Positions 3-19,249 of a stretch of 64,000 nucleotides of DNA are shown piece by piece. Each line of letters opens with the position of its first letter. Position 1 is the stretch's first letter. Source of the stretch: Flavitalea plasmicola (GTDB lineage Bacteria > Bacteroidota > Bacteroidia > Chitinophagales > Chitinophagaceae); NCBI RefSeq assembly GCF_030546645.1, contig NZ_JAUOTO010000004.1, positions 682,001-746,000 of the forward strand, given 5' to 3'. The position numbers and the translations under genes were made by a program. The notes under the pieces were generated by a model. That model ran no database searches. It was not told where the DNA came from and saw only the letters and a program-made list of their open reading frames with translations.

Positions 3-2621
3 ATCCGTGGTACGGGTACGTTGAACAATTCCGATCCGCTGGTGGTCATCGATGGCGTGCCTGCGGGGACGATGAATGATGTGAACCCAAATGATATTGC
101 GTCGATCGAAATATTAAAGGATGCGTCTTCTTCCGCTATTTATGGTACACGGGCCGCGAATGGGGTTGTGCTCATCACAACTAAGAGAGGAAGCTACGGC
201 GACCAGATGAAGATCAGCGCCAATGGGTACACCGGCGTCAGCCATGTAGCAAAGTATTTGAAGCTGGCAACGGCTGCACAGCTAGCGCCTTTAAAGCTGG
301 AGGCTTATGCAAATGATTCAGTCACCACGGGTCCGAATGTAGAGTTCTGGCAAGATCCGGCCAATGCGGTGCAGCGTACGGATTGGCAGCGGGCTTTGTT
401 CGGCACTGGCAAGGTCAATAACGCCGATCTGGCTATCCGGGGTGGCAGTGGTAATTCCAATTACAGTTTTTCCGGTAATTATTACGATGAAAAGGGGCTG
501 ATCATCAATTCCTATTTTAAGCGATACAGCGCCAGGATCAACTCGGAGCACCGACTGGGCAGCAGGATCAAAGTGGGGGAGAATTTCCTGTACAGCAAGC
601 GCAGCGGGGCCTCTCCTGAAACGCGTTCCACCCAGACAGGTCTTGTCTGGAGCGCTCTGCGCTTCAATCCTGCCATTCCTGTGTATACAGATTCCACGGG
701 CAAATGGGGGTCTTCAAAGGGCAAGTCGGAATTTGGGGACATCAATAACCCGGTGTTCACCGCCACGACGAACGACATCCATACCACTAACAATAACCTG
801 CTGGCGAATGCCTATATCGAAATAGAGATATTGAAGGGTTTGAAGCTTCGCGGCAACCTGGGCTATGATCAGGAAATGCAGGAAAGATATGAGTTCTATC
901 CTGCTACGCCGGACCAGGTCCGGGTAAACCAGCTGGCCAGCCTGAAGCAAAGCCATACGGAATATTCTTCTTTGCTGAACGAGATCTACCTCACCTATAA
1001 CGGGCAATTCGGGACGGACCACTCGCTGACCTTAACGGGCGGCTATTCGGGACAAACATCCAAGGGAAGCTCGTATTATGCGCAAAGGACCGGTTTTTCT
1101 GATACGGACCCCAACCAGCTGATACTGGACAATGGCAGCGGCAGCAACCAGTTCTCGGGGGGAAACAACAGCGGAGCCAATGGATACAATTTAAATCCTA
1201 CGGTGCTCATATCCTATTTCGTACGTGGCAATTATGCCTACAAAGGGAAATACCTGGCGACGGCGACCATGCGTGCGGATGGGTCCGGCAAATTTCCTCC
1301 CGGTCACCAGTGGGGCTATTTTCCAGCCTTCTCGCTGGGATGGAGGGTCTCCGACGAAAATTTCTTCAAGAACAATGTCGCTTTTGTCAACAGTCTTAAG
1401 CTCACAGGCGGCTGGGGACAGCTGGGTAACCAGAATGTGAACGACTTCCAGTTCTTAGGCAATTTGTCTGCAACCAATCAATATAATTTCGGCGATCCTG
1501 CCCAGGTGGTGAACGCCTCTTATATCGTCGGTCTTTCCAACCCGAACATCACCTGGGAAAGGGCGGAAATGACAAATATCTCACTTGAGTTCGGACTGTT
1601 GAGGAATCATCTAACGGGAACCCTTACTTATTTTAACAAGGACACCAAGGATATGCTGGTACCCGTCTCACTGGTGGAGACCTATGGCGCTGCGCCCAGC
1701 ATTTATGGAAATGTGACGGTGCCCGACCAGAACCAGGGAACGCTGAACAACCATGGAGTGGAACTGGACCTGACCTATCAAAATACAGCGGGCAAGCTGA
1801 GCTACTCGCTGGGTATCAATGCGGCCTTCCTGAGCAATAAGGTCACCCATCTTTATGGATCAAAAGATACCTACATCGGGTCAGTGTTCTATGGCCGTCA
1901 ATCCCTGGAAACTTCCAGGACCTATGAAGGCCAGCCCATTGCATCCTATTATGGGTTCAGGACGGCCGGACTGTACCAGTCACAGGATGATATCAACAAG
2001 GATGCGGGTATTGCAAACGATCCGAACAAGGCGAATATCAAACCCGGCGATGTCCGATTTGTGGATATCAACAGGGACGGGGTCATCGATGACAAGGACC
2101 GTGTGAAGCTGGGCGATCCCAATCCCCGGTTCACTTTCGGGTTCCATGGCAGCCTGGGCTTTAAAGGCTTCGATCTTAGCTGGAATTTCAGTGGCCAACT
2201 GGGCAGCAAGCTGTACAATGCCGACCGGATGACGGGCCTGGACGGCACCCAGTTCTTCAACATGTATGCCGAGGCTGTGAACAGGTGGCATGGTCCGAAC
2301 ACCAGCAACAGCATACCCCGCCTCAGCAAGGCTAACCTGAATGTCAACAACCGGAGCTCCGACCTTTGGGTCGAGAGCGGCAATTATGTGAGCCTGAAAA
2401 CGCTGACCCTCGGGTATACGTTGCCACGGACGATGGTGGGCAGCTGGCAACTCCCGGAGTCAAGGATCTATGTCAGCTCTTACAACCTGCTCATGATCAC
2501 CGGGTACCGGGGATACACACCTGAGCTGGGTTATACAGACGGCAACAGGCAAAGGGGCGTGGACGTAGCTCAATATCCGCCTGCAAGGAATTTCACCATC
2601 GGTGCAACCTTTAATTTTTAA
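3..2621 (+). CDS. SusC/RagA-family TonB-dependent outer-membrane receptor, 5' truncated
   Basis: The frame is open at the left edge (codon phase begins at base 3), so the signal peptide, the carboxypeptidase-like domain and part of the plug lie outside the window. The visible part starts in the TonB plug, with VVIDGVPAG and then LKDASSSAIYG followed by AANGVVLITTKRG, the standard SusC plug signature. About 800 residues of beta-barrel follow, ending in an aromatic C-terminus (GATFNF). Proteins of this family import oligosaccharides across the outer membrane using TonB energy and form a complex with a SusD lipoprotein. The next gene, starting 4 bases after this stop, is that SusD. The glycosidase fusion behind it suggests a complex glycan as substrate, which is inference. 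Confidence 0.96.
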   Translation: MRGTGTLNNSDPLVVIDGVPAGTMNDVNPNDIASIEILKDASSSAIYGTRAANGVVLITTKRGSYGDQMKISANGYTGVSHVAKYLKLATAAQLAPLKLEAYANDSVTTGPNVEFWQDPANAVQRTDWQRALFGTGKVNNADLAIRGGSGNSNYSFSGNYYDEKGLIINSYFKRYSARINSEHRLGSRIKVGENFLYSKRSGASPETRSTQTGLVWSALRFNPAIPVYTDSTGKWGSSKGKSEFGDINNPVFTATTNDIHTTNNNLLANAYIEIEILKGLKLRGNLGYDQEMQERYEFYPATPDQVRVNQLASLKQSHTEYSSLLNEIYLTYNGQFGTDHSLTLTGGYSGQTSKGSSYYAQRTGFSDTDPNQLILDNGSGSNQFSGGNNSGANGYNLNPTVLISYFVRGNYAYKGKYLATATMRADGSGKFPPGHQWGYFPAFSLGWRVSDENFFKNNVAFVNSLKLTGGWGQLGNQNVNDFQFLGNLSATNQYNFGDPAQVVNASYIVGLSNPNITWERAEMTNISLEFGLLRNHLTGTLTYFNKDTKDMLVPVSLVETYGAAPSIYGNVTVPDQNQGTLNNHGVELDLTYQNTAGKLSYSLGINAAFLSNKVTHLYGSKDTYIGSVFYGRQSLETSRTYEGQPIASYYGFRTAGLYQSQDDINKDAGIANDPNKANIKPGDVRFVDINRDGVIDDKDRVKLGDPNPRFTFGFHGSLGFKGFDLSWNFSGQLGSKLYNADRMTGLDGTQFFNMYAEAVNRWHGPNTSNSIPRLSKANLNVNNRSSDLWVESGNYVSLKTLTLGYTLPRTMVGSWQLPESRIYVSSYNLLMITGYRGYTPELGYTDGNRQRGVDVAQYPPARNFTIGATFNF

Positions 2622-2625
2622 TCAA

Positions 2626-4194
2626 ATGAACCTACATAAAGCAACATATAGCAAGATAGTAACGGGCAGCGTGACCCTGGGCCTGCTGTTTGCCGGCTGT
2701 GTAAAAACTTCCTTGAACATAAAGCCGGTGGGCACATATACCACAGCAACCTATTGGCGTAATGAAAGCGACGTGATCACCGGGATCAACGGGATCTACA
2801 ATGTGCTGACGCAGGAAGAAGGGGTGGGACACAACCTGTATGCCTTTGACGATGCGTCCGATGACATAGCTATAGATGGTGACCATCCGGACATGTGGGC
2901 CATCGAGCGGTTTACGGCCGATGCGACGGCCTACCAGCTGCATCCTACCTGGAGCTGGTCTTACGAGCAGATCGCACGCGCCAATAATGCCATCATCTAT
3001 GTGCCCAAGGTGCCGGTGTTAAGCGACGATATCCGCAACCGGTCTATGGGGGAAGCGTATTTCCTCCGGGCCCATGGTTATTGGGTGCTGAACCAGATCT
3101 TCGGGGAAGTGCCGCTGATATTGGAAGCGAATGTGCTGGACGGGAACTATAATATACCCAAGTCATCAGTGGATTCTGTGCGTGCACAAATTGAATCGGA
3201 CCTGCTGAAAGCCGCCGACCTGTTGCCGGAGAGCTATGGGGCCAGCGACAAGGGCAGGGTAACAAAAGGTTCGGCCTGGGGATTGCTGACCAAGCTGTAT
3301 ATGACCTGGGAGAAATTGGATAAGGCGATCACCTATGGAACGATGGTGACCAGCAATGCCAATTATGCGCTCGCTTCAAAATATACGGACAATTTTACCC
3401 TGGGCAGCCAGGAGAGCAATACGGAGATCCTTTTTGCGGTGTGGAATAAGAACAACTACAACAATTCTCCTATCAATATTTATTTCACGCCGCGTGCCTG
3501 GAATGGATGGGGTTTTCATCACCCGACGGAGAATTTTGTATCCCAGTTCGAAACGGGTGATAGTGTCCGCAAGCGGACTACCATTCTGGCTGTGGGAGAC
3601 AGTATTCCGAACCAGACGACCATGATCGAGATAGCTCCCTCGGATGCTTACCAGATGTTCACAGGCAAGGCAGGGCAGTCAACCGGCAGGATGTTGCCGA
3701 GCAATTCTCCCACCACCGGCTACTGTCTCCGGAAGTATACTGCCTATAACCCGGATGGTTCCGGCAACCTGGACGGCGACCTCAAGCAACCCCTGCTACG
3801 TACGGCCGATGTTTACCTGCTGGTGGCGGAAGCGAAGATCCGGACCAGCGGAGCTGGCGCCGGAGACGCGGAGATCAAGGCCGTTCGGGAGCGGGCCGGG
3901 CTTACGGCTATTACGGGCGCGACGATCAATGATCTTATCCACGAACGCCGCGTAGAGCTGGGTGGCGAGAACACACGCTTCCAGGACCTGGTGCGTTGGG
4001 ACAAAGCAGGCGTGGTGAACCTTGACACTATTGTCGGCAAGCCTAAGTATGCATCAACCTTGCAGCCATATAACCATGCCGTTGCATTGCCGGCGCGTAC
4101 GTTTACACGTCCGAAGAACTATTACTGGCCCATTCCGCAGGTGGTCATTGATGAAAGTAAGGGAGTGATCACACAAAATCCCAATTATAAGTAG
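2626..4194 (+). CDS. SusD/RagB-family glycan-binding lipoprotein
   Basis: A 522-residue SusD-like protein. I start it at the ATG at 2626, just after the SusC stop, because this places a lipoprotein signal peptide at the N-terminus with lipobox LFAGC; the frame is also open upstream for eight residues inside the SusC end. The N-terminal part (TYWRNESDVITGINGIY, then AYFLRAHGYWVLNQIFGEVPL) is typical of the SusD TPR-like core. The C-terminal part has the family pattern ADVYLLVAEAKIR, ending in a WPIPQ motif near the C-terminus. It would sit on the cell surface as the lid of the SusC channel. Gene order SusC-SusD-glycosidase makes this a polysaccharide utilisation locus. Confidence 0.96.
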   Translation: MNLHKATYSKIVTGSVTLGLLFAGCVKTSLNIKPVGTYTTATYWRNESDVITGINGIYNVLTQEEGVGHNLYAFDDASDDIAIDGDHPDMWAIERFTADATAYQLHPTWSWSYEQIARANNAIIYVPKVPVLSDDIRNRSMGEAYFLRAHGYWVLNQIFGEVPLILEANVLDGNYNIPKSSVDSVRAQIESDLLKAADLLPESYGASDKGRVTKGSAWGLLTKLYMTWEKLDKAITYGTMVTSNANYALASKYTDNFTLGSQESNTEILFAVWNKNNYNNSPINIYFTPRAWNGWGFHHPTENFVSQFETGDSVRKRTTILAVGDSIPNQTTMIEIAPSDAYQMFTGKAGQSTGRMLPSNSPTTGYCLRKYTAYNPDGSGNLDGDLKQPLLRTADVYLLVAEAKIRTSGAGAGDAEIKAVRERAGLTAITGATINDLIHERRVELGGENTRFQDLVRWDKAGVVNLDTIVGKPKYASTLQPYNHAVALPARTFTRPKNYYWPIPQVVIDESKGVITQNPNYK

Positions 4195-4206: not shown

Positions 4207-7200
4207 ATGAAATATATCATTTGTGTGCTGCTGGTCTTGTCCGGCGGGATGGCATATGCTCAGTTGGATAAAGCGTCGCTGGGAGCATTCTTACAAAGAA
4301 TAGTGAAGGATAAGGCTGTCCAATTTGAAGTGGAATATATTGCGCAGGAAGGTGGCAAGGATGTTTTTGAGCTGGACGGGCGGGGGAACAGGATCGTGCT
4401 GCGCGGCAGCAATGGCCTCAGTGTAGCTTCGGCGCTCAATTATTACCTGAAGAACTATTGTCACCGCCTGATCACCTGGAATGGGGCGCCTGCGCCGCTG
4501 CCGGGGGTGTTGCCTGCTGTCCGGAAGAAAGTACATCGCGCCACGCCTTATCAATATCGCTACTACCTCAATTATTGTACTTTTCAATATTCCATCGCAT
4601 GGTGGGACTGGGACCGTTGGCAGCGTGAGATCGACTGGATGGCGCTGAATGGTATCAATATGCCGTTGGCCCTTACGGGCGAAGAGGCTATCTGGCAGGA
4701 AGTCTACCGGGAAATGGGATTCCAGGACAAGGAGCTGGACCGATTCTTCAGCGGGCCTGCTTATTTTTCCTGGTTGTGGATGGGGAATATCGATGCCTGG
4801 GGCGGTCCTTTGCCCGCGCATTGGAAGGAGAGCCATGCCGCCCTGCAGAAAAAGATATTACAGGCCGAACGGTCCTTTGGGATGAAGCCGGTGCTGCCTG
4901 CATTCACGGGGCATGTTCCACCTTCATTCAAAGACAGGTTTCCCCAGGCTAAAGTAAAGAAAACGAATTGGGATGCCGGCTTCGACGATGTGTATATACT
5001 CGATCCTTCGGATCCTCTTTTCGAGACCATTGGCAAAAAATTTATCGAGGCGCAGACACGGGCTTTCGGGACGGACCATTTTTATTCGGCCGATACGTTC
5101 AATGAGAATGTGCCTCCCACCAGCGATTCCCTGTACCTGGATGGGATGAGCCGGAAAGTATATGCTTCCATGGCGCAAGCGGACCCAAAAGCCATTTGGG
5201 TCATGCAGGGGTGGATGTTCCATTACAATGCGGCATACTGGAAGCCCACCCAGATACAGGCGCTGCTGAAAGCCGTGCCGGACGATCATATGATCCTGCT
5301 GGACCTTTATAGCGAGAGCCACCCGGTGTGGAACAGGACGGAAGCCTATTATGGCAAACCCTGGATATGGAACATGCTGCATAATTTCGGGGGCAACATC
5401 AGTCTTTGGGGAAGGATGAGTCATGCCGCCGAAGATCCTTCAAAGGCGTTGCACGATCCTGCCGCGGGCAGGATGACAGGCATAGGTCTTACGCCGGAGG
5501 GTATCGAACAGAATCCTGCATTGTACCAGCTGATGCTGGAAAATGTGTGGCAGGACGGACCGGTGGACCTGAAGGCGTGGCTGCGTGATTATGCTTTACA
5601 ACGGTATGGTGTAAGCGATAAATCGGTGGATACGGCCTGGGGTCTATTGGAGGGTAGTGTTTATAATGGCGGATTGACGGAAGGCGGTATGGAGTCCATT
5701 ATTCAGGCGCGGCCCACACTGGAGCCGGCTGTCGACCGGGTGAACACTCATTTAAGCTATGATCCGGCAGTATTGCAACAGGCCTGGAAGATCTTTGTCC
5801 AGGCGGCGCCCAGGCTGAAAGGCAGTGACGGCTACCGGTATGACCTGGTGGATATCACCCGGCAGGTGTTGGCCAACTATGCCTCCGTATTACAGCAGCG
5901 TTTTGCCGCTGCGTGGAAAGAGAAGGATACGGCGGCTTTTCGCCGCAACAGCCGGCAGTTCCTGACTTTGATGGACGATATGGACCGGGTGCTGGCGACA
6001 CGCCGGGACTTTCTGTTGGACAAATGGATCAAGGAAGCGAGGGCATGCGGGGCGACGGCATCGGAATCCGACCTGTATGAGAAGAATGCGCGGGACCTCG
6101 TTACACTTTGGGGAGATAAGGAAAGTGGTTTGCGGGAGTATTCCTGCCGTCAGTGGAGCGGGCTGATCAAAGGTTTTTATAAACACCGGTGGGAGCTGTT
6201 CTTTCGCCGGATGGAGCAGGCCCTGGCTGCCGGCGTGGACCTCGACTGGAAGGCTTTCGATAAGGAGGTGAAGGATTGGGAATGGCAGTGGGTGAATGGT
6301 CATGACGCTTATGCTGCTGTGGTGAAGGGAGATGAAGTACAGGCTGTTACCGCGATGTTTAAGAAATATTTTGCAGCCATGCAGGAGCCCGTGGCGACCA
6401 ATGACCATATCTTTCCCGGCGCTGCTGTTGCGAAGCGCTTCATAGATTTTGACAGCAAAGGGTTTCTGGTAAATGGCCGGCGGACCTTTCTTGTCTCGGC
6501 AGGGCTGGAATATGCGCGTATACCGCACGAGCTTTGGCAAGACAGGTTATTGCGATTGCAACGGGCCGGGTTTAACTGCATCGAGATCTATACCTTTTGG
6601 AACTGGCATGAGCCGGAGGAAGGAAAATTCGATTTCAGCGGGGATCATGACCTGGGCGCTTTTCTTCGTCTGGTGAAAAGCATGGGCCTCTATGCCATCG
6701 TGCGGGTGGGGCCTTATTATTGTGCGGAGTGGGACAACGGCGGCTATCCATTGTGGCTGCGTTTCAAGCCGGGCGTTCGTGTGCGTGAAGATAATGCGGA
6801 GTTTGAAAAGTATGTGGATCGTTTTTTCGATAAATTATTGCCGATCGTATGCGGCCAGCAGATCCATCGAGGGGGGGCGGTGATCCTGGTACAGCTGGAG
6901 AACGAACATAACAAGGGCTGGGGTACCTATATGCCGGATGGATATTTCCGGCATCTGCAGAAAAAGGCACTTTCGATGGGTATGGAAGTGCCTTATTTTT
7001 TTAGCGGCCTGCATCATGCCAGCGATCCTGCCGGCGATGGCGGCGGCGTTGTCACGGATCACAGGGGAGATCCCGCAAGACTGGATGATCCGGCCAGGCC
7101 CAGTCCCTGGATGTCCACGGAGTTCTGGAGCGTATGGTACAACGGTTACGGCTCCACGGAGCATGATGCCCGGGAATATGCGCGAAGGACCTGGAAAATC

Positions 7201-10200
7201 ATTGCTCATGGAGGCAGCGGCTATAATTATTATATGGCCCACGGGGGCAGCAATTTTGGATTTACCAATAATGACGAGGATGCCGCATCGTATGATTATG
7301 GAGCGGCTGTCGGACAGGCAGGGGATCTGCGGCCAATTTATTACAGCTTTAAAAAAGCCGCCTGGTTTGCCAGAAGTATGGCGGAGGTGCTGGAGAACAG
7401 CGAGGATGCCACGGATATATGGAAGCATGTTTGTAAGGATAGTTTGATAAAGGTGACTGCCAGGCAAAGCCGTGCGGGTGATCTGTTGTTTGCGGATAAC
7501 CCTTCCGGGGCTGCCCGGAAAGTGCAGATAACCGTCGGGGACGTTGCTACGTTGCCAGCGCAGGGGCCATTGTCAATCGGGCCGGGAGAGATCGTGTCTG
7601 TTATTCATAATGTCTCCGTTGCATCCGGAGTGGTATTGGAATGGGGGCCTGTACGATTGTTGGGCATTGATAAGCAAGGCGCCTTTACCACGATGGTGAT
7701 CTATGGTGAGGAGGGCACCCCTGCCGAATTGTATTTTTCCGTCAAGGGGAAGGTTGTGTCAGTGCCGGAGACGGAGCATTTCGTGACGAGTAATGGGAAA
7801 GTTGTGTTCAAGGACTTATTCAGGGGTGGTGACAGCGCTGCTACCTATAGTTTTTCTGTCGGCGGGCAAAGAATACGGATAATTGCTATGAGCGGGGAGT
7901 TGGCAGACCGGACCTGGTTTGTAGAGAAGGGCGTTATTGTTGGCCCGGGCTATGTTGGGCGGATGCAAGGGGCTTCCATTTTTGCAGAACAAACGTGGGG
8001 GGACAAGCGGGCGTTTCCGGTGCGGATGTTTGATGCCAACGGAGAGCGGCGGCTGACAATAGATGAGATGCCGGAACACCGGGATATCAGGACCCTTTCG
8101 CTCTCGGGCTGGCAGATGAAAAAAGTAACCGTTCCGAAAGCCGGAGATAAGTGGCTGCTCTCGGCCCGTCCGAAGCAAATGGGATCAGATGGCAATGGGG
8201 CGCCCTGGGCCTGGTATTCCAGCCAGATTGAAATAAAGGAAGACGGTAACTATACGCTGCAGGTAGAGGGAGGGGACAGGGCCACGATCTTTGTCGATGG
8301 TGCGCCGGTGAGGCGCATCCATCTTCATGAGGGGGAAGCTGCGCTCGCCCTTTCGAAAGGCATGCATACCCTTGCCCTTTTTACGGCTCATGACGGGCGT
8401 GATAAGCTGGCTGGTTTCATGGGAGATATGTCGGATGTGGACAGCAAGGGGCTGACGGGGACAGCGAGCGTGGTGAAAGGAGGTCCTTTAAGGCATATAT
8501 TAGGGGGCTGGCAATATTCGAAAGATGGAAAGGAGGAATGGAAAGACTATACCATCGGACAGGATATATTTTCCAGGCAACAGGGGACAGCCTGGTTCCG
8601 AACGGTGCTGCCGGAGTTACCGGCGGGCATAACAAAGGGGCAGCTGATCTTTCGCAGCGTGGATGAAAATGCCACGGTATATCTCAATGGAAGGCGGCTA
8701 ACCAGGCATGAGGGATGGAACATCCCTTTCAAGGTGCAACTGGATGGCCTGGATACGATGACCAGGCCGCTGACGCTCACTATCTTTATAGAGAACTATT
8801 CCAATGAAGGCGGAATCGATCAGGCAGTGAAGCTGGACTACCTTTCCGATGTGAAGGAAGTAGCAGGTTGGCGGATGTGCGGAGGCTTCGGGGATACGGC
8901 TGGTGTTCGCTATGCGGATATCCATGACGGGGATACGATGACCCCTTGTTTTTACCGCACGACCTTCGATGCGCCGGTGCAACCTCCTGGCGACCATTTG
9001 ATATGGAGAGTTTCGACACAGGGGCTGGGCCATGGTTCCGTCTGGGTCAATGGGCACAACCTGGGCCGATTCCCTGAAAAGATCCCTGCACCGGGTCTTT
9101 ATATCCCTGAATGCTGGATGAAGGAGGGGATGAATGAACTGATTATTTTCGACGAGGATGGTAAGCGTCCGGCGGAAGTAGCGATCGTTCCGGAACTGAA
9201 AGCGAGCAGGGAGATCATGCATTATAAAGACCGTGATCTGCTGTCTTATGTGGACCCTTTCATCGGGACGGCCAAAAGCGATGTATACACGCGATGGGGT
9301 AATGAAGGGGGGACTTATCCCGGAGCCGTAGCGCCCTGGGGGGCCATGCAGCTGACCCCGGAGACAAAGGCTACGGGAGGATATGACTATCATGACAGCA
9401 CCATTTTCTTTTTCAGCTGTCTGCATCACATGAGCGGCTATCCCAATGGTTCTGCGGGAAGGATGAAGATCATGCCCGTGGTTAGAGGGATGGGAGAAAG
9501 TAAATTGTTCAGGCACGCTGATGAAGCAGCTGCGCCGGGGTATTATAAAGTTCAGTTTATTGACAATACCATTGTGGAAGCCACGGCTTCGGAAAGGGTG
9601 GGTTTTTTTCGCATGCGTTTTCCATCGGGCACTGCGGCGAAGGTCTTTATCGGTGGTATGGGAAAGATCATTCGCCGTAGTCCTTTGCTGTTATACGGCA
9701 CGTACGGAATTGTTGTGCAATTCGACCGGGCCAGCTCTGCTGAGCAGGTGGTGGATGACGGACTGGTGATCGTTTTCCCTGAGGGAACCAGTGAGGTCCT
9801 TCTACGGGTGAGCGCGTCTTCCGTGTCGGAAGCCAGCGCGCTGAATAACATCGACAAAGAAACGGGTGGGCTTGGATTCGATGCTGTTCTGGAGAAGACC
9901 CGTGCAGATTGGAGGAAACAGCTAAGTGTCATCGAGGTCGATGACGAGCGGGAAGACAGGAAAAAGATCTTTTATACGGCGTTGTATCATGCAGCGTTGC
10001 TGCCCTGGATCATTTCCGATGTGGACGGACGGTACAGGGGGCAAGACGGGCTTATTCACCAGGCTTCGGGACAACGCGAATATGGAGGTTTTTCAGCCTG
10101 GGATACATTTCGCAGCCTGCATCCTTTGCTTTGCTTATTGTTCCCGCAGCGGCAACGGGACATGGTGCTATCGCTGCTGGATATCTACCGGCAGACGGGG

Positions 10201-12297
10201 CACCTACCCCTGGACCCTATGACGGGAAACCATGCGGTGGCGGTGATCGCGGATTCGTGGGGGAAAGGTATTCGCGGATATGACAGCGTTGAAGCGTATG
10301 CCGCTATGCGAAGGGGAGTGATCGACACACCTTACTTACAGGACGACAGAAACGTCTACCGGCAGCTGGGATATATTCCTTCGACCTATCCCGAGTCAGT
10401 GACGAGAACGGTGGAATATGCATATGATGACTGGGTGGTTGCATGGTTTGGGGGAAGGAGAGACCAGGGATATAATTACAGGCAGCTATTTGATCCGAAC
10501 AGGCTATTCATATTGCCCAGGGATGGGGAGCGGGGTAACAGCGGATATAAGGAAGGGGACAAATGGGTGTATTCGTATTTTGCGCCGCAGCATCCGGAAG
10601 ACCTGGTAAACCTGATGGGAGGTGGGGATGCTTTTACGGAGAGACTGAACGAAGCGTTGAAGCGACAGGATATTCTATTTGATAATGAAACGGTGTTCCA
10701 TATACCGTACCTTTTCAATTATGCCGATCATCCGGATAAAACGCAGGAATGGGTGAGCAGCATCCGGGACGGCCGGTTTGCCGCCACACCCGGAGGGCTT
10801 CCGGGCAATGATGATCTGGGTTCGATGTCGAGCTGGTATGTTTTCAGCGCCCTGGGATTTTATCCCGTGTGTCCGGGGAGGCCGGTGTATGATGTGGGCA
10901 CGCCGCTTTTTCGAAAGTCGATCCTGCATCTTGCGGGGGGGCGGGACCTGGTGATAAAGGCTCCTGGCATTTCTGCCCAGAATCGGTATGTCCGGGGAAT
11001 GCTGGTTGATCACAAGCGTTGTAAGGGCCTGTCCCTGGCACATGCGCTGATCGCTAAAGGAGGGGTGGTTGAGTTTATCATGGGTTCAATGCCTGGGTAT
11101 GGCCCAATAGGGGGAAACAGCCCCGATTTTTCCATTACGGGTATTTCCGTTAGAAAGGATAAAGTGCGGCCTCATGAATCATTCAGCGTGACATTCACTC
11201 TGAAAAACAGGGGTAGCATGGGAACGAAGATAGTAAGGTTGATGGCCAACGGACGGGTCATAGGTGAAAAGAATTGCCTTGCCGCATCAGGGGCGACCGT
11301 CATCGATTCTGTGTCTTGCCGGCTGTATGCATTTGGAAGGACGAAGCTTAAGATAGAAGGGGTAAAGGGTACACGGGAGGTAGAGGTTATCAGGGATGGT
11401 AAAGGAGCGCAGGCGGAGGCGTCAGATCTTGCGGTGAGCCCGTTGGTCAAAAAGGGAGAATCGCAGTCCATTTCATTTATTGTTCGAAACATAGGGGGCG
11501 AGGCAGGTTTATTGAGCGTTCCTGTCAGGGTTAATAAGGATACGGTGGTTGTTGACAGCATAAAACTCGATCCGGGTGAGTGCAGGACAGTATCGCAACT
11601 GCTGCATATTCCCAATGAAGGAGTGTATACCATCAGTGTAATGGGATCGGCTGAAAAATGTAAAATATATCGGGATTGGCGCGAGTCGATCTTGCTGGAC
11701 CTTTCTCTGAATAAGACTGCCGGGGACAGCCTGGTAAAAGACAGATCGGGCTATGGTAATGAAGGTGTGATTGTAAGGAATGATACAGGAGTAATAGGAG
11801 GGGGCTCTTATCCGCTGTTTGGCAAGGAAGCTTACCTGGTGGTACGGCGTTCACAGTCACTGGACAGGATGGGAGAAACTATTTCTATGATGGTCAATGT
11901 TTATCCCACGGTACAGTGTGAGGGGTTAGTGGACATTCTTACAAAAGGAGACAGCCATGTTTTACAAGTGACGGATAATAAGAAACTAACTTTTTTCGCC
12001 GGAGGCTGGGGAAGGGGAGATTGTACAGTGGACTTACCGGCAAACTGGATATGCCACTGGCATCACATTGCGGGAGTATGTGAAGGTGACCAGCTTCGTG
12101 TGTATATAGATGGAGAACTGAAGGGAGAGGCTAGAGTGGAAGGGAAAGTGAATATGTCGGTATCCAATAAATGGATATTAGGTAGGAACGAAGAATTTCC
12201 CGAGCTAAGGATATTCAACGGATACATGGACAATGTAAAGGTTTTTGCGGAGCCATTGACGGGAGACGAAGTGAGGGCTGTTATTAAGGAAGATTAG
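4207..12297 (+). CDS. giant secreted glycosidase fusion: GH89 + GH35 + GH92 with CARDB-like and LamG-like modules
   Basis: A single 2696-residue frame with signal peptide (MKYIICVLLVLSGGMAYA). Residues about 20-735 match alpha-N-acetylglucosaminidase (GH89): YYLNYCTFQYSIAWWDWDRW, acid/base E300 in DTFNE and nucleophile E431 in TPEG. Residues about 745-1675 are a full-length beta-galactosidase-type GH35: GPYYCAEWDNGG, acid/base E900 in QLENEH, nucleophile E972 in STEFWSVW, then beta-sandwich domains ending near WVNGHNLGRF. Residues about 1679-2305 are a GH92 alpha-mannosidase: SYVDPFIGT, catalytic-acid candidate E2116 in KEGDKW, and the GNDDLGSMSSWYVFSALGFYP hallmark (D2202/D2203). Two CARDB-like sandwiches follow (about 2308-2400 and 2406-2490), then a LamG-like domain (about 2494-2690). 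All key residues I could check are present. It follows SusD by 12 bases and overlaps the convergent acyltransferase by 14. The combination suggests attack on an N-glycan or other host/plant glycoconjugate; the substrate is inference. Confidence 0.93.
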   Translation: MKYIICVLLVLSGGMAYAQLDKASLGAFLQRIVKDKAVQFEVEYIAQEGGKDVFELDGRGNRIVLRGSNGLSVASALNYYLKNYCHRLITWNGAPAPLPGVLPAVRKKVHRATPYQYRYYLNYCTFQYSIAWWDWDRWQREIDWMALNGINMPLALTGEEAIWQEVYREMGFQDKELDRFFSGPAYFSWLWMGNIDAWGGPLPAHWKESHAALQKKILQAERSFGMKPVLPAFTGHVPPSFKDRFPQAKVKKTNWDAGFDDVYILDPSDPLFETIGKKFIEAQTRAFGTDHFYSADTFNENVPPTSDSLYLDGMSRKVYASMAQADPKAIWVMQGWMFHYNAAYWKPTQIQALLKAVPDDHMILLDLYSESHPVWNRTEAYYGKPWIWNMLHNFGGNISLWGRMSHAAEDPSKALHDPAAGRMTGIGLTPEGIEQNPALYQLMLENVWQDGPVDLKAWLRDYALQRYGVSDKSVDTAWGLLEGSVYNGGLTEGGMESIIQARPTLEPAVDRVNTHLSYDPAVLQQAWKIFVQAAPRLKGSDGYRYDLVDITRQVLANYASVLQQRFAAAWKEKDTAAFRRNSRQFLTLMDDMDRVLATRRDFLLDKWIKEARACGATASESDLYEKNARDLVTLWGDKESGLREYSCRQWSGLIKGFYKHRWELFFRRMEQALAAGVDLDWKAFDKEVKDWEWQWVNGHDAYAAVVKGDEVQAVTAMFKKYFAAMQEPVATNDHIFPGAAVAKRFIDFDSKGFLVNGRRTFLVSAGLEYARIPHELWQDRLLRLQRAGFNCIEIYTFWNWHEPEEGKFDFSGDHDLGAFLRLVKSMGLYAIVRVGPYYCAEWDNGGYPLWLRFKPGVRVREDNAEFEKYVDRFFDKLLPIVCGQQIHRGGAVILVQLENEHNKGWGTYMPDGYFRHLQKKALSMGMEVPYFFSGLHHASDPAGDGGGVVTDHRGDPARLDDPARPSPWMSTEFWSVWYNGYGSTEHDAREYARRTWKIIAHGGSGYNYYMAHGGSNFGFTNNDEDAASYDYGAAVGQAGDLRPIYYSFKKAAWFARSMAEVLENSEDATDIWKHVCKDSLIKVTARQSRAGDLLFADNPSGAARKVQITVGDVATLPAQGPLSIGPGEIVSVIHNVSVASGVVLEWGPVRLLGIDKQGAFTTMVIYGEEGTPAELYFSVKGKVVSVPETEHFVTSNGKVVFKDLFRGGDSAATYSFSVGGQRIRIIAMSGELADRTWFVEKGVIVGPGYVGRMQGASIFAEQTWGDKRAFPVRMFDANGERRLTIDEMPEHRDIRTLSLSGWQMKKVTVPKAGDKWLLSARPKQMGSDGNGAPWAWYSSQIEIKEDGNYTLQVEGGDRATIFVDGAPVRRIHLHEGEAALALSKGMHTLALFTAHDGRDKLAGFMGDMSDVDSKGLTGTASVVKGGPLRHILGGWQYSKDGKEEWKDYTIGQDIFSRQQGTAWFRTVLPELPAGITKGQLIFRSVDENATVYLNGRRLTRHEGWNIPFKVQLDGLDTMTRPLTLTIFIENYSNEGGIDQAVKLDYLSDVKEVAGWRMCGGFGDTAGVRYADIHDGDTMTPCFYRTTFDAPVQPPGDHLIWRVSTQGLGHGSVWVNGHNLGRFPEKIPAPGLYIPECWMKEGMNELIIFDEDGKRPAEVAIVPELKASREIMHYKDRDLLSYVDPFIGTAKSDVYTRWGNEGGTYPGAVAPWGAMQLTPETKATGGYDYHDSTIFFFSCLHHMSGYPNGSAGRMKIMPVVRGMGESKLFRHADEAAAPGYYKVQFIDNTIVEATASERVGFFRMRFPSGTAAKVFIGGMGKIIRRSPLLLYGTYGIVVQFDRASSAEQVVDDGLVIVFPEGTSEVLLRVSASSVSEASALNNIDKETGGLGFDAVLEKTRADWRKQLSVIEVDDEREDRKKIFYTALYHAALLPWIISDVDGRYRGQDGLIHQASGQREYGGFSAWDTFRSLHPLLCLLFPQRQRDMVLSLLDIYRQTGHLPLDPMTGNHAVAVIADSWGKGIRGYDSVEAYAAMRRGVIDTPYLQDDRNVYRQLGYIPSTYPESVTRTVEYAYDDWVVAWFGGRRDQGYNYRQLFDPNRLFILPRDGERGNSGYKEGDKWVYSYFAPQHPEDLVNLMGGGDAFTERLNEALKRQDILFDNETVFHIPYLFNYADHPDKTQEWVSSIRDGRFAATPGGLPGNDDLGSMSSWYVFSALGFYPVCPGRPVYDVGTPLFRKSILHLAGGRDLVIKAPGISAQNRYVRGMLVDHKRCKGLSLAHALIAKGGVVEFIMGSMPGYGPIGGNSPDFSITGISVRKDKVRPHESFSVTFTLKNRGSMGTKIVRLMANGRVIGEKNCLAASGATVIDSVSCRLYAFGRTKLKIEGVKGTREVEVIRDGKGAQAEASDLAVSPLVKKGESQSISFIVRNIGGEAGLLSVPVRVNKDTVVVDSIKLDPGECRTVSQLLHIPNEGVYTISVMGSAEKCKIYRDWRESILLDLSLNKTAGDSLVKDRSGYGNEGVIVRNDTGVIGGGSYPLFGKEAYLVVRRSQSLDRMGETISMMVNVYPTVQCEGLVDILTKGDSHVLQVTDNKKLTFFAGGWGRGDCTVDLPANWICHWHHIAGVCEGDQLRVYIDGELKGEARVEGKVNMSVSNKWILGRNEEFPELRIFNGYMDNVKVFAEPLTGDEVRAVIKED

Positions 12298-13507
12298 GCA
12301 TCAACGGTCGTCTAATCGCAGGCTGCAATCTTTTTTCCAGTACCCATGCTGTAAGCGATATAACCGACAAGTATATTATTACCCGAGCTATATATAGTAA
12401 CAAATTGTCATTCGAAAGGGACAATCTGCCAAACAGGAACAGAAATGGGTAGTGGATCATATATAATCCATAAGAAATGCCTGCCGACCATAGCCCGATC
12501 TTTCGCAGATGCAGGTCTGGCACCCGGATAAAACAGATCAATAGCGCTATAGCCAGATAAGCAATGCTGATATAAAGTTGAGGCGGTAGATTGGATGGAT
12601 CGTTAAATAAACGGTATACAATGAATAAGGGAATTACCTGGATAATTATGAATAGGTGGGTTTTATATCTTAGAGTCTTACCTGCAAAAAATAGGACAAT
12701 CATGAAACAATAGGGGATGAACAAAAGGTCGTTTACGCCAACCATTTGTTGATCCCATAACCATAAGTTCTCCTTGAATACAGGTGCTTTTATCTTTGAC
12801 AAAAGTCCTTCAATGGTGAAAAAAGCATTTTCTCCAATAATATTCCCTATCCCCAAAATGTAAAATAGCAGTGCCGGAAGGTTTGGCCTGGTATAAGTTT
12901 CCTTAAAATTCCGGGCTATAAACAACCCCGACAGCCAAAAGCAAAACCCATAAGCATATGCAGAAATCAGCGGGTTGAAAGGCAGATAGAGATTGATGGT
13001 GCCGATAATCAGTGAAAAGATAAAAGCGATGGAAGGCTTTATATTAAAGAGGGAGACGGGGATAAAGAGCAAGTAAAATAAAACTTCATAATTTAGCGAC
13101 CATGCGGGGCCATTAGTGCCGAGGACCTCGTAAACTATATTTTGCGTCAGCGTGAAATTTGCGACGATCACCTGCCAGGGATAGGGGTAGGGTGCCACCA
13201 GAATACCTAACAGGATGGCTATAAAATAAATAGGGTATATTCTTACGAATCTTTTTTTTAAATAGGTCCACAAATTCCGGCCGGCTAGTTTGTTTCCGTG
13301 GTTTACCCCTATGACATATCCGGACAATACAAAAAAAAGCAGAACGGCCAATTGTCCTGAAGGTTTAAACCGGCCCAATGCAGTCGGAAAGTAGTCGAGG
13401 TCGAGGATGTCATGATGATCTATAATATGGAAGAAAACGATGATCAATGCGGAAAACCCTCTGAGGATCTCTATTCCGTGGTTTATTTTTTTGCCTTCCG
13501 ATATCAT
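12284..13507 (-). CDS. acyltransferase 3 (OafA/YrhL-like) membrane protein
   Basis: About 407 residues, an integral-membrane acyltransferase of the type that O-acetylates surface polysaccharides. The N-terminus has the family motif EILRGFSALIIVFFHI, followed by about ten hydrophobic segments (for example LAVLLFFVLSGYVIG and NYEVLFYLLFIPVSLF). The start at 13507 is preferred because its ATG overlaps the stop of the upstream O-antigen ligase gene as ATGA; an ATG three codons upstream (13516) is also possible. It is the last gene of a three-gene minus-strand operon. The 3' end overlaps the convergent glycosidase gene by 14 bases. The donor (probably acetyl-CoA) and acceptor cannot be read from the sequence. 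Confidence 0.88.
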   Translation of the reverse strand: MISEGKKINHGIEILRGFSALIIVFFHIIDHHDILDLDYFPTALGRFKPSGQLAVLLFFVLSGYVIGVNHGNKLAGRNLWTYLKKRFVRIYPIYFIAILLGILVAPYPYPWQVIVANFTLTQNIVYEVLGTNGPAWSLNYEVLFYLLFIPVSLFNIKPSIAFIFSLIIGTINLYLPFNPLISAYAYGFCFWLSGLFIARNFKETYTRPNLPALLFYILGIGNIIGENAFFTIEGLLSKIKAPVFKENLWLWDQQMVGVNDLLFIPYCFMIVLFFAGKTLRYKTHLFIIIQVIPLFIVYRLFNDPSNLPPQLYISIAYLAIALLICFIRVPDLHLRKIGLWSAGISYGLYMIHYPFLFLFGRLSLSNDNLLLYIARVIIYLSVISLTAWVLEKRLQPAIRRPLMPNLP

Positions 13508-15282
13508 TGATTGCAATCTTTTAATAATTCCAATGCCTGACCTTTAATGGTATATATTTCGGCAGAGGGGTAAATAATTTTTGCAGTTAGAATCTTTTCT
13601 GCCAGGCTATCAGCAGATCTTTTATTATGTATGGTTTGATAATACTGCATCAGTGCATATTTGGGTAAGAATTTCTTAGGTACCATGGTAACAGCCTTCA
13701 TATAATATTCTTTTGCCTTTTCATAATTTTTTATTCCAAGATAATCGTCTCCCAGGTACACCAACAGGTCAGTGTTTGTGAAATATTTCCCTGCTTTTTC
13801 CAGCATTGTCAGACTTTGCATGTAATCATTGTCTGTTGATAACTCGACTCCGTAATTGTAGAGAAACCGGCCGTTGTTGTCTAAAGTTGAATATATCTCA
13901 TTATATTTTTTTAGTTTTTTATCCGAATCCTCCTGACTTAATGCAAGAATTTCCCATTTGTATTGAGCATTGGTCAAATAAGAATTTATTATGCCTGTTC
14001 CCATGGCAATCACTAATAGTGTTGACAAAACACCGTTTCTAACTAATGGTGTAAGCGTGTATTCAACAGATTTTTCATCCCGGGGTCTTACTGCAGAGAT
14101 CAGTATTACTACGTAGGATAGGATTACGAAATCTCTGAAAGGGTAGGAGAAGATCGCTACGGCCGCAATGGAGGATAAGGATGCGATCACCGGAGGAGAG
14201 ACGGATGGCTGATATGAGTTATATGTTTTTTTAACGAGTTTAATCCAATAGGACAGCCCCAATACAATTAATATCAAGCCCGGAAGACCCAATTCGGCGA
14301 CGATCTGAAGATATTCATTGAACGCGACCTGGACATTGTCGGCAACTAACTGGTCGGATGTGCTTTGCTGCAGGGCATTGAAATAATTGGACTGGTATAG
14401 AGGGTATACAGCTGGAAATTTTCCCGGTCCAATACCGAAGAGGGGATAATCTTTGATTAATGTCAACGTGTTTTGATAGATCAGGATCCTGCCGTGGGCG
14501 GAAGTGGGGCGTAAAAGGTATAATGCCAACATGCCAGCAGCAGCAATGGTAATTACTATTGCTGTTTTTTTCCCATTTGACAGCAATGAAAAAAAACCGG
14601 ATGGGTTGCTCATCGTTATTTTTCCGGCTGCAATAATAATGAGGCCGACCACGATCCCAACCAATGACGATCTTTCAAGACCTAATAAGACGACAACAAA
14701 GGAAAACGACGCACTTGTAATCATTAAAATCCGGAAGAGAACACCTTTCTCTATGCATGATTTGTAGATATTAATTATGGAAAAAGGTATGGTAAGGCAA
14801 AGGAAGTTAGCGAACATGCTTGGGTTTGCAAAAGGGCCTCCCATCTTAAAGAATGGATTATTGTACTTCAGTATTCCGGAAAATTGCAACATGCCATAAA
14901 GAGAAAACAGCAACCCTGCAGCCGGAAATGCGAAATTTATTATGTTTTCTATTAGTTTTATTTCTATGCTTCTTAAAGAGATATACAATATCAGAAAAAG
15001 TAAAAGATTAAGGAGCGTTTCATTTTTGGGAGAAAAGTAATCAGTGAAGATCAGGCGTAAAAATGAGACTAAAATGAAAAAAAAGACAATGTAGTCTGCA
15101 GGAGTAAGTACTATGGTTATTTTTTTCGTGAGCAAGTGGCTGAAAGTGAAAATAGAAAATAGTAAAATAATGGATTGGATATAGACTACTTGCCAATCAA
15201 GCACTCTCGGGTCAAATGCTATAAAATGAACGCAGGGGGATATCAGAATGAGGAGTAAAAATGCGGTATTTATTTTTTTCAT
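13504..15282 (-). CDS. O-antigen ligase/polymerase-like membrane protein with C-terminal TPR region
   Basis: 592 residues. The N-terminal two thirds are many hydrophobic segments beginning MKKINTAFLLLILISPCVHF, with the Wzy_C/WaaL-like middle: GRILIYQNTLTLIKDYPLFGIGPGKFP, then a long periplasmic loop leading to NEYLQIVAELGLPGLILIV. After the last membrane segment (about residue 420), the C-terminal 170 residues look like tetratricopeptide helices (YLGDDYLGIKNYEKAKEYYMKA). Such proteins join or polymerise lipid-linked glycans at the periplasmic face. It is 24 bases downstream of the transglutaminase-like gene and overlaps the acyltransferase start, so the three are probably co-transcribed. Codon use is AT-rich compared with the flanks. 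Confidence 0.88.
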   Translation of the reverse strand: MKKINTAFLLLILISPCVHFIAFDPRVLDWQVVYIQSIILLFSIFTFSHLLTKKITIVLTPADYIVFFFILVSFLRLIFTDYFSPKNETLLNLLLFLILYISLRSIEIKLIENIINFAFPAAGLLFSLYGMLQFSGILKYNNPFFKMGGPFANPSMFANFLCLTIPFSIINIYKSCIEKGVLFRILMITSASFSFVVVLLGLERSSLVGIVVGLIIIAAGKITMSNPSGFFSLLSNGKKTAIVITIAAAGMLALYLLRPTSAHGRILIYQNTLTLIKDYPLFGIGPGKFPAVYPLYQSNYFNALQQSTSDQLVADNVQVAFNEYLQIVAELGLPGLILIVLGLSYWIKLVKKTYNSYQPSVSPPVIASLSSIAAVAIFSYPFRDFVILSYVVILISAVRPRDEKSVEYTLTPLVRNGVLSTLLVIAMGTGIINSYLTNAQYKWEILALSQEDSDKKLKKYNEIYSTLDNNGRFLYNYGVELSTDNDYMQSLTMLEKAGKYFTNTDLLVYLGDDYLGIKNYEKAKEYYMKAVTMVPKKFLPKYALMQYYQTIHNKRSADSLAEKILTAKIIYPSAEIYTIKGQALELLKDCNQ

Positions 15283-15306
15283 GGCCTGAGGATTGGAATT
15301 TGATAT

Positions 15307-17226
15307 TCACCACCATATTTGTTTGCCATTTTCGAAAGTGAATATCCTTTCCTCTTTTCCGCGGGTTTGATCGTGTAGCAGATACAACCCATTCCCCGGT
15401 ACATGGTCGAATATCAACATTTGGGTAGAGTCGCCGGTGCGCGTGCCCAGAGATTGCCATTGTTCATTATTCCAACAGAATAGTTCATACATATCCGATT
15501 GGTTTATGAAATTGTCATCATTACGGCAAAGGAATTTTATTTTGGAAAGTTTTTTTGGTGTATCAAATCGCATTCCTACCCAGTTACCCATCGAGGTCAG
15601 TCCCTGGAAGAAAGTCAACGGGTTTCCATCGAATGCAGTTTGCAACCCATTTTCGGGATCCGATTGCTGCGAGCCTATAGGATGGCCAGTAACCTGTTGG
15701 TCTTGCGTATCAAAGAACTGTAACTCGGCAATATCTCCATAGGTTGAATCACGGGGAAGATATCGCCAGTATCTGAACTTTGAGTTAAGTGTTACCTTTA
15801 CAGTTTGGTAATTCATTTCGGGTGCCTGGGTAATCCTATATATGTCCACGGCGTCGCTGAAATCTGCTTTATTAGAGGCTTGAAAGCGCCCCCCTATTAA
15901 TGCCAGTGTCCTTGAATCCCACCAATCAAAGATGGGGTATTTTCTTTTCAGATAAAAGGTTTGTAGAGCGGTTGCTTGCGGAACCAAGGCATATACGGAT
16001 CCTAATGAATCGACTTTCTGTGGAGGTGCGATGGGTTTAAATTTTCCATCGACATATATAGCGGGTAAATAAACAATATTTTTACCCATCCCTTTAAATA
16101 TGATTTTCCCATCCTTTGCTTCGGCCCAACATATTGGTGTCCAATTTGCATTATCAAAAACACATAAATAGGCGAATTTTCGTTGATTGGGGAGATTTCC
16201 GTCATAGTTTATTGCTACACTGACACCATTATAGTAGCATGAAGAGACATCTTTTAAACAAGGGTCGTCAAAAATTTCAGGAATTTCCTCATTGCCATGA
16301 ATGATTGCCAGACTACCAGGTTGCCTGCTGTACATTCTCCTGTATACTTTGGCAATTTTGTTCCCTGTGTTTATCAAGAGATGTCCTCCTATTTTACCGG
16401 CATTTACACCTTCAAAGTCGATACAGGAGTCTTTGCTAATAACCAGAGCGCTCCATGCGTGACCATTGGCTCTGTGTGGCCATTGGAGGGTGAAGTCCTG
16501 TGCAACGGGCAACCCGAATGACCTCATTATATATATGGACAGGCTGCTGGATTCTATACAGGTACCACCCTTGAGATGTTGCAACACTGAAATGGGGAAG
16601 CTGGGAACGTTATCGGGGAACTGGAACAGGAACATGCCTGGGCTGCGGGTACGGCTCAATATCGAGTCTGCTGCCATTTGCATATTGCATTGGGATATCT
16701 CTCCGAATTTATATTTCCGATGTAGAGCGGTCCTGAAATCTTCGAAGGATTCGTTCCCAATTCGGTAGGGAAGAATGTATTCGCAAAAATCATCGAATGT
16801 TACTTTTCCTTTCCATGCCGCCTGATCCCAACTGGTAAAAGCTTCCTCGATATTTTTAATCAGATATGCCGAAGATATGGATTCAAGGTCCGGCATTTTT
16901 GCCGGTTGTCCTACCATACTGCCATTTATTGTTTCAAATGCAATAAATGCTTGTTTATAAGCAGTGGGGGGTATCGACTGGTTTGAGATGGAATCGCAAA
17001 ATTTAAAAAAACGTTGCAGTCCTTCGCCCACAAGTGAAAATTTTCCCTCCATATTACTAATGAGAAATTTTGCCGCCCGGAGCTTAAGTGAGTCTTCTTT
17101 CTTCTCACTATAAAAAGAAATCACTTTCGCCAATTCAGATCTGTTGGCGGCTGCCTTTTGTGTAATGTCTGGCTTTCCCTGGCAGCTAAATAACAACAGG
17201 AAGAATAGATGAGGCGTGAATTTCAT
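15307..17226 (-). CDS. transglutaminase-like domain lipoprotein with C-terminal discoidin-like region
   Basis: 639 residues. The N-terminus MKFTPHLFFLLLFSC ends in a lipobox with Cys15, so it should be a lipoprotein. A transglutaminase/protease-like core carries an apparent Cys-His-Asp triad: C223 (LKGGTCIESS), H256 (ANGHAWSAL) and D270 (SCIDFEG). The C-terminal part (about residues 475-610) resembles an F5/8-type carbohydrate-binding fold, with a change-in-appearance pattern AFDGNPLTFFQG and GNWVGMRFDTPKKLSKIKF. It is the first gene of the operon with the O-antigen ligase-like and acyltransferase genes, which suggests an envelope or capsule role. Whether the catalytic core is a peptidase, amidase or crosslinker is unknown. 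Confidence 0.8.
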   Translation of the reverse strand: MKFTPHLFFLLLFSCQGKPDITQKAAANRSELAKVISFYSEKKEDSLKLRAAKFLISNMEGKFSLVGEGLQRFFKFCDSISNQSIPPTAYKQAFIAFETINGSMVGQPAKMPDLESISSAYLIKNIEEAFTSWDQAAWKGKVTFDDFCEYILPYRIGNESFEDFRTALHRKYKFGEISQCNMQMAADSILSRTRSPGMFLFQFPDNVPSFPISVLQHLKGGTCIESSSLSIYIMRSFGLPVAQDFTLQWPHRANGHAWSALVISKDSCIDFEGVNAGKIGGHLLINTGNKIAKVYRRMYSRQPGSLAIIHGNEEIPEIFDDPCLKDVSSCYYNGVSVAINYDGNLPNQRKFAYLCVFDNANWTPICWAEAKDGKIIFKGMGKNIVYLPAIYVDGKFKPIAPPQKVDSLGSVYALVPQATALQTFYLKRKYPIFDWWDSRTLALIGGRFQASNKADFSDAVDIYRITQAPEMNYQTVKVTLNSKFRYWRYLPRDSTYGDIAELQFFDTQDQQVTGHPIGSQQSDPENGLQTAFDGNPLTFFQGLTSMGNWVGMRFDTPKKLSKIKFLCRNDDNFINQSDMYELFCWNNEQWQSLGTRTGDSTQMLIFDHVPGNGLYLLHDQTRGKEERIFTFENGKQIWW

Positions 17227-17280
17227 TCAGGGAGATTTTGATTCTTAAGATACCAAATTTTCCTAACCCTTTCAAGGTTT

Positions 17281-17312
17281 GCGGTTGACCGCATTTGAAT
17301 GGCGGTTAACCG
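17281..17312. promoter_or_regulatory. two phased palindromic repeats in a divergent promoter region
   Basis: GCGGTTGACCGC at 17281-17292 and GCGGTTAACCG at 17302-17312 are 21 bases apart start to start, two helical turns. CGGTTAACCG is a perfect palindrome; the first copy departs from symmetry at the centre. Both are followed by an ATTT run. They lie between the divergent transglutaminase operon and the DUF1573 gene, so they are a good operator candidate. No regulator gene is adjacent. Confidence 0.45.
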
Positions 17313-17413
17313 AATTTATTTTGTGTAGATAAGTATGTAATTATATTTTGTCCCTAGCGAGCTATTGCTTAAATTACATTAAGCATTATTATTTTTTTAT
17401 AAAAATAAGAAGT

Positions 17414-17845: not shown

Positions 17846-17883
17846 GATATGCGTTTTGTTTAATAATCAAAAATAAAAAAAAG

Positions 17884-18450: not shown

Positions 18451-18494
18451 ATAACTGTATAGTTACTCATATCGAAGCCCCTGTGGCCAAATGG
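18450..18494 (+). pseudogene. remnant of the 3' end of a DUF1573 gene
   Basis: These 45 bases align without gaps to 17801-17845, the last 15 codons of the DUF1573 gene including its stop: 33 of 45 positions match by hand count. The stop TAG has become TGG here. The translated remnant DNCIVTHIEAPVAKW mirrors DNYTVIHIEATVSK. Spacing to the following ATG (36 bases) is close to that in the original unit (38 bases). It shows that the DUF1573 tail and the downstream gene were copied together. Confidence 0.75.
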
Positions 18495-18530
18495 TTGTAT
18501 TTTTTATTTATTAAATTTAAAAGTAAAGTT

Positions 18531-19243: not shown

Positions 19244-19249
19244 TATTTC

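What the first reader, a model, noticed from the sequence alone, without database searches (positions are those of the whole stretch)
4207..12297. Triple glycosidase fusion GH89-GH35-GH92 in one secreted polypeptide
One uninterrupted 2696-codon frame carries three full-length catalytic modules with visible catalytic residues: GH89 (E300/E431), GH35 (E900/E972) and GH92 (E2116, D2202/D2203), then CARDB-like and LamG-like modules. These families are normally separate genes in glycan utilisation loci. The set (alpha-GlcNAc, beta-Gal, alpha-Man removal) suggests a single-chain machine for a branched glycoconjugate, with intermediates passed between sites.
Basis: partly seen in the sequence, partly recalled or inferred. 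Interest (0 to 1): 0.82.

Follow-up and report, generated by a model that had tools for sequence, protein, structure and literature searches.

The report
Three sugar-cutting enzymes in one protein
A bacterium of the Puia group has welded three neighbouring sugar-removing enzymes into one giant exported protein; relatives still carry the same genes separate or half-joined, so the fusion is real, happened in steps, and points to a shared but still unproven glycan target.

Summary
Window 4207-12297 is one open frame of 2696 codons encoding a signal peptide, GH89, GH35, GH92, a weak CARDB-like stretch and LamG; the named catalytic residues are invariant in the orthologs aligned. It is the only glycosidase gene of a compact polysaccharide utilisation locus (ECF sigma, FecR, SusC, SusD, fusion). 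The same locus occurs in the genus in four fusion states: full fusion, GH89-GH35 | GH92, GH89 | GH35-GH92, and all separate. Separate downstream genes mostly start with a hydrophobic leader where the fused chains have short linkers. On enzyme trees the GH89-GH35 join needs one change, the GH35-GH92 join three. In 33 of 33 non-Puia loci GH89 and GH35 are separate and an HGSNAT-like acetyltransferase follows GH35. This is a new variant of a known kind, a multicatalytic PUL enzyme. Substrate channelling has no support. HGSNAT+GH89+GH35+GH92 matches the sugars of plant GPI anchors or GIPC lipids; that is my boldest reading and is untested.

The parts
4207..12297 (+). whole fusion gene, 2696 codons
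4207..4263 (+). signal peptide MKYIICVLLVLSGGMAYAQ, no lipobox Cys
   Evidence: read; no signal-peptide program was run
4285..6366 (+). GH89 module (NAGLU N, barrel, C; residues 27-720); E300 at 5104-5106, E431 at 5497-5499
   Evidence: aligned to human NAGLU 4xwh; invariant in 23 of 23
6367..6462 (+). junction 1: GH89 C-terminus runs into the mature GH35 N-terminus (NDHIF) with no stop and no signal peptide
6463..7359 (+). GH35 TIM barrel (753-1051); E900 at 6904-6906, E972 at 7120-7122
   Evidence: invariant in 21 of 21
7360..9222 (+). GH35 accessory domains, with galactose-binding domain at 8944-9135
   Evidence: GH35 module aligned over its length in A1
9205..9246 (+). junction 2: GH35 C-terminus joined to mature GH92 N-terminus (YVDPFIG)
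   Evidence: linker pLDDT under 50
9247..9651 (+). GH92 N-terminal domain (1681-1815), partial match to the profile
9838..11085 (+). GH92 catalytic domain (1878-2293); E2116 at 10552-10554, D2202/D2203 at 10810-10815
   Evidence: predicted fold matches GH92 BT3130, TM 0.74 by query length
11446..11640 (+). CARDB-like stretch (2414-2478), under the curated cut-off
11821..12273 (+). LamG / concanavalin-like domain (2539-2689)
3..2621 (+). SusC-like TonB-dependent transporter (starts upstream of the window; whole in L038:13190-16621)
2602..4194 (+). SusD-like glycan-binding partner

Best explanation
A genuine multicatalytic, exo-acting glycosidase that makes up the whole glycosidase complement of one PUL. 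SusC/SusD import a small oligosaccharide; in the periplasm the single chain strips alpha-GlcNAc (GH89), beta-Gal (GH35) and alpha-Man (GH92) from its non-reducing ends. It arose from an operon GH89 | GH35 | HGSNAT | GH92-CARDB-LamG: HGSNAT left the GH35-GH92 interval, then stop codon, start and signal peptide at the joins were lost in frame, once at GH89/GH35 and probably three times at GH35/GH92. Shown: architecture, conserved catalytic residues, PUL context, intermediate states, leaders present when separate and absent when fused. Inferred: activities, periplasmic location, joint action on one glycan, direction of change. The gain from fusion is most likely shared export and equal dosage, not channelling.
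For: Domains and residues. PUL. Same PUL with four fusion states. Junction 1 fused in 5 of 13 Puia loci where both genes can be judged, junction 2 in 6 of 11; 3 of 14 scored loci have the full fusion. Hydrophobic leader found by a simple script in 23 of 26 separately started GH35 or GH92 genes of 17 loci tested (13 of 14 GH35, 10 of 12 GH92), none at the fused joins as read. Trees: junction 1 one change, junction 2 three changes on the five-protein tree, the enzyme concatenation and each single-module tree. Unfused state in the non-Puia loci. Shared downstream DAO gene in G000, G018, G004, G001 and G017.
Against: No activity, expression or localisation data. Support for the junction 1 clade is 83/78 in the five-protein tree and 70/88 with GH89 alone (100/99 with the enzymes together), and the SusC/SusD tree gives 3 and 5 changes. 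Two loci lack a member (G029 no GH35, G032 no GH92), so the trio is not indispensable. G003's state rests on two contigs: its GH35 is cut by a contig end. G009 was left unscored (GH89 frame breaks near a contig end); G016 is a different PUL; the other 17 of 33 genus genomes were not fetched.
Confidence: 0.8

Rival explanations
1. The target is an inositol glycan with alpha-glucosamine: plant GPI anchors or GIPC lipid heads. HGSNAT acetylates the exposed alpha-GlcN across the inner membrane, GH89 then removes it, GH35 takes the beta-Gal branch, GH92 the alpha-mannoses. (A substrate version compatible with the best explanation.)
For: An HGSNAT-like gene follows GH35 in 33 of 33 non-Puia loci; the copy of L126 aligns to human HGSNAT with the His at chain position 297 (catalytic role recalled). 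In 5 other loci of a class sample HGSNAT directly abuts GH89 (L178, L179, L180, L182, L189). [quoted passage not shown] plant GIPCs carry GlcN/GlcNAc, and Man or Gal (PMC9113257, passages), and Botrytis releases such heads as soluble inositol phosphate glycans (PMC11496612, passages).
Against: HGSNAT is absent from the window's own PUL; the nearest copy lies elsewhere (C13:543016, 58%), and HGSNAT-like genes are common (33 of 33 genus genomes match). In the class sample 13 of 19 GH89 regions have no HGSNAT, including all 4 of the window's genome. The conserved core (ECF to GH92) holds no phosphodiesterase or inositol gene; flanks were annotated only in part, with one GDSL lipase-like gene in L059. 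GIPC heads would also need an alpha-glucuronidase.
Confidence: 0.25
2. The target is a protein glycan such as an N-glycan, or a mucin-type glycan capped with GlcNAc-alpha-1,4-Gal, near the first reader's suggestion.
For: Solved GH92 relatives include a plant N-glycan alpha-1,3-mannosidase (7zgm). Two Puia loci carry GH20 fused to GH89 (L126 by Pfam; L121 by similarity), one carries GH95.
Against: N-glycans carry no alpha-GlcNAc as a rule, and gastric-type mucin O-glycans no mannose (general knowledge, recalled). No endo-acting enzyme among the core genes.
Confidence: 0.3
3. The single chain channels intermediates between active sites.
For: Short linkers at both junctions; repeated joining.
Against: No structural sign: linker pLDDT under 50, pTM 0.61 and 0.75, which is inconclusive rather than negative; unfused versions with conserved catalytic residues persist in many relatives; published multicatalytic enzymes show synergy in some cases and none in others (PMC8417218, passages).
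Confidence: 0.08
4. Ancestral fused protein that was split in relatives.
For: The change counts do not by themselves fix direction.
Against: A split would have to create a signal peptide each time; outgroup loci are unfused with HGSNAT after GH35.
Confidence: 0.03
5. Assembly or sequencing artefact.
For: None found.
Against: Same architecture in three separate assemblies.
Confidence: 0.01

Closest known systems
Multicatalytic enzymes of PULs and biomass degraders (CE6-CE1 of Bacteroides ovatus and Flavobacterium johnsoniae; CE15-GH8 of B. eggerthii; ChiA of F. johnsoniae; CelA of Caldicellulosiruptor)
   Same: Several catalytic domains in one exported chain (PMC7110780 and PMC8417218, passages)
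   Different: Those have two catalytic domains and serve xylan, chitin or cellulose; here three exo-glycosidase families, with the stepwise fusion visible in relatives
Human lysosomal HGSNAT + NAGLU pair
   Same: GH89 module aligns over about 680 residues to NAGLU, and relatives keep an HGSNAT-like gene in the operon
   Different: No heparan partner enzymes in the core; in the window the HGSNAT gene is not in the locus
GH92 alpha-mannosidases BT3130, BT3990
   Same: Fold, and acid and base positions
   Different: Shorter stretch before the FDNETV-type motif in the 20 orthologs, so linkage specificity cannot be carried over
Standalone GH89 of the same genome (C13:18794-20845)
   Same: 60% identical GH89
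   Different: Separate gene; the gene upstream has LacZ_4 and Bgal_small domains

Membership tests
GH89 | NAGLU N, barrel and C domains with two catalytic Glu | tested here: met
   which Glu are catalytic is recalled
GH35 | GH35 barrel with acid/base and nucleophile Glu | tested here: met
   roles recalled
GH92 | GH92 N-domain and catalytic domain with acid Glu and base Asp | tested here: met
   N-domain match partial; roles recalled
GH92 alpha-1,2-mannosidase subgroup | +1 subsite loop as in BT3990 | tested here: inconclusive
   stretch shorter in the alignment; the binding residues are recalled and were not seen
Bacteroidota PUL | adjacent SusC/SusD pair with CAZyme and regulator | tested here: met
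Multicatalytic PUL enzyme | two or more distinct catalytic domains in one open frame | tested here: met
Multicatalytic PUL enzyme | each domain active, with or without synergy | not testable with these tools
   needs enzyme assays
Substrate-channelling enzyme | fixed geometry linking active sites | tested here: inconclusive
   low-confidence linkers, shallow alignments
HGSNAT-NAGLU route for alpha-GlcN | HGSNAT encoded with GH89 in the locus | tested here: not met
   met in 33 of 33 non-Puia loci and Puia G031, not met in the window's own locus

The most novel reading that the evidence does not exclude
This is a PUL for the glycan of plant GPI anchors (or GIPC heads): a bacterial periplasmic copy of the lysosomal HGSNAT-NAGLU trick combined with beta-galactosidase and alpha-mannosidase, whose whole glycosidase set has collapsed into one polypeptide in some Puia.
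Probability: 0.2. Interest if true: 0.82.

Novelty: new variant of a known kind. Interest (0 to 1): 0.6.

Why it matters
It gives a staged record of operon genes turning into one enzyme, with intermediates in living relatives, so the benefit of fusion can be tested on matched natural pairs. The conserved gene set also predicts a glycan target for which I saw no described bacterial locus in the listings (titles and abstract starts; open-licence papers only).

Tried and rejected
Family, order and class searches with the GH35 profile at E 1e-150 matched 9 of 394, 2 of 298 and 2 of 395 genomes, the window's own included; no match outside the genus lay in a frame above 1028 aa, so no fusion there. 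Structure prediction of both junctions was meant to test a rigid interface; both models are too weak there. Downstream flanks were looked at for substrate clues: they vary; shared items were an extra GH92 in 4 loci and, in Puia, the DAO gene; several shared families on the opposite strand (14- and 6-member clusters) were not annotated. The window acyltransferase at 12284-13516 was considered as a displaced HGSNAT and rejected (no match; Acyl_transf_3). The paper searches with GH89 terms listed no paper or 20 of 21 papers that by title are mostly surveys, genome papers or fungal studies; the HGSNAT-with-PUL search listed 20 of 1,440 papers, none holding the HGSNAT phrase. Oxley and Bacic 1999 is not held, so its linkages are recalled.

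Full report
Observation. Window 4207-12297 on the + strand is one ATG-initiated frame of 2696 codons. Pfam assigns all three families far above cut-off: NAGLU/GH89 at 27-720, GH35 at 753-1051 with a galactose-binding domain at 1580-1643, GH92 N at 1681-1815 and catalytic at 1878-2293, then a sub-threshold CARDB and a LamG at 2539-2689. The GH89 part aligns to human NAGLU over about 680 residues; the predicted GH92 part matches BT3130 (TM 0.74 by query length). The GH92 N-domain match is partial and the stretch before the FDNET motif is shorter than in the five solved chains aligned, so its linkage preference is open.

Context. Upstream lie ECF sigma, FecR, SusC and SusD in the same orientation; the fusion is the only glycosidase gene there, and the next three genes downstream face the other way. 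The genome held is 8.73 Mb; the genus includes Puia dinghuensis.

Relatives. Of 33 genomes of the genus I fetched regions from 15, besides the window's own. Fifteen of the 16 carry this PUL. Scored: G000, G018, G001 fully fused; G004 and G003 GH89-GH35 with separate GH92; G028, G023, G021 separate GH89 with GH35-GH92; G020, G017, G031 all separate (G031 with GH20 fused to GH89 and HGSNAT in place); G008 GH89-GH20 then GH35 to the contig end; G029 without GH35; G032 without GH92. G009 has the PUL but its GH89 frame breaks near a contig end and it was not scored; G016 is another PUL. Junction 1 is thus fused in 5 of 13 and junction 2 in 6 of 11 assessable loci. In G003 the GH35 is cut by a contig end and GH92 lies on another contig, with its own leader.

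Mechanism of fusion. In fused chains the upstream C-terminus runs straight into the mature N-terminus (NDHIF or its variants for GH35, YVDPFIG or its variants for GH92) with a few linker residues. Separate GH35 and GH92 genes begin with a hydrophobic leader in 23 of 26 cases by a simple script; in two of the three misses (G004 GH92, G020 GH35) the translation printed shows a leader-like stretch; the third is Mucilaginibacter OK098 GH92. Most gaps between separate genes lie between an overlap of 32 and a gap of 90 bases, with 157 (G031) and 214 (M. gossypiicola) as exceptions; where no start was found the script used the open frame, which overstates overlap.

Trees. With five proteins and with enzymes together or each module alone, junction 1 needs one change and junction 2 three. 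Support for the junction 1 clade is 83/78 with five proteins, 100/99 with enzymes together, 70/88 with GH89, 85/96 with GH35 and 95/94 with GH92. Since a split would have to invent a signal peptide, I read the changes as gains: one for GH89/GH35, three for GH35/GH92 (G000+G018; G001; G028+G021+G023). The SusC/SusD tree disagrees (3 and 5 changes), partly because G000's SusC/SusD belong to another lineage, partly because G017 groups with G018 there (87/74).

Outside Puia. A scan of 84,980 species genomes gave 80 loci of the GH35 subfamily (81 found, capped, two peptide patterns). Forty-four have GH89 in the same locus; 33 of these are not Puia: 33 have HGSNAT after GH35, 31 have GH92 (L065 and L072 do not), none shows a fusion. 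In Puia only G031 was seen with HGSNAT between GH35 and GH92; G017 and G020 show the intermediate with HGSNAT gone and genes still separate.

Substrate. [quoted passage not shown] The protein of L126 aligns to it, including the His at human chain position 297 (catalytic role recalled). In a class sample 12 of 295 genomes had GH89 matches at E 1e-60. Of 19 GH89 regions fetched (the window's own PUL not among them), 6 hold HGSNAT: one is this same PUL (L181), five have it directly beside GH89 (L178, L179, L180, L182, L189); 13 do not, including all four of the window's genome. This supports an alpha-GlcN substrate for part of this GH89 group. The sugars of the pear AGP GPI anchor (three Man, one Gal, GlcN-inositol; PMC7769824, passages) match the enzyme set one for one; the linkages are recalled. 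GIPC heads are nearly as good (PMC9113257, passages). Against: no lipid- or inositol-handling gene in the core, flanks only partly annotated, HGSNAT missing from the window's locus, and HGSNAT-like genes common in the genus (33 of 33 genomes). I give this about one in five to one in four.

Literature. No paper of the library held all of GH89, GH35, GH92 and 'polysaccharide utilization loci' (0). Multicatalytic PUL enzymes are known. Searches for GPI with PULs (8 papers), three catalytic domains (1) and the enzyme trio (9) listed no title on such a protein.

Verdict. The finding is real and rare, best classed as a new variant of multicatalytic PUL enzymes. Its value lies in the staged fusion history and in a testable substrate prediction.

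Noticed in passing
window 3-4194 and L038:11321-16621: SusC/SusD of the window branch outside all other Puia copies (100/100) while its enzymes are 73-88% identical to G018; ECF also differs (29-33% to G018, G004, G001, G003, but 66-76% to seven others). The regulator/transporter block seems to have been exchanged.
   Followed up: partly
window 12298-21730: A 40.2% GC block (acyltransferase, O-antigen ligase, MacB/FtsX-like permease among its genes) lies between the fusion (52.8% GC) and the DAO gene that directly follows the locus in G018, G004, G001 and G017; it looks like a recent insertion.
   Followed up: partly
L126:5158-9720 and L046:1412-5611: In two Puia genomes GH89 is fused to a GH20 domain instead (Pfam for L126; the G008 copy by similarity as L121): a second fusion route in the same PUL.
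   Followed up: partly
L178, L179, L180, L182, L189: HGSNAT-like genes directly beside GH89 in other loci of the class, suggesting an acetylate-then-hydrolyse route for alpha-glucosamine.
   Followed up: partly
L087:15307-17751: GH95 gene overlapping the end of the GH35-GH92 fusion in G021; an 846 aa frame sits likewise in G028 but was not annotated.
   Followed up: no
window 11137-12294: GC3 falls from 63% in GH89 to 45% in LamG within the one gene.
   Followed up: no
L038:7914-11303: An FG-GAP/UnbV-ASPIC protein of 1129 aa ends 17 bases before the ECF sigma gene of the PUL, same strand.
   Followed up: no
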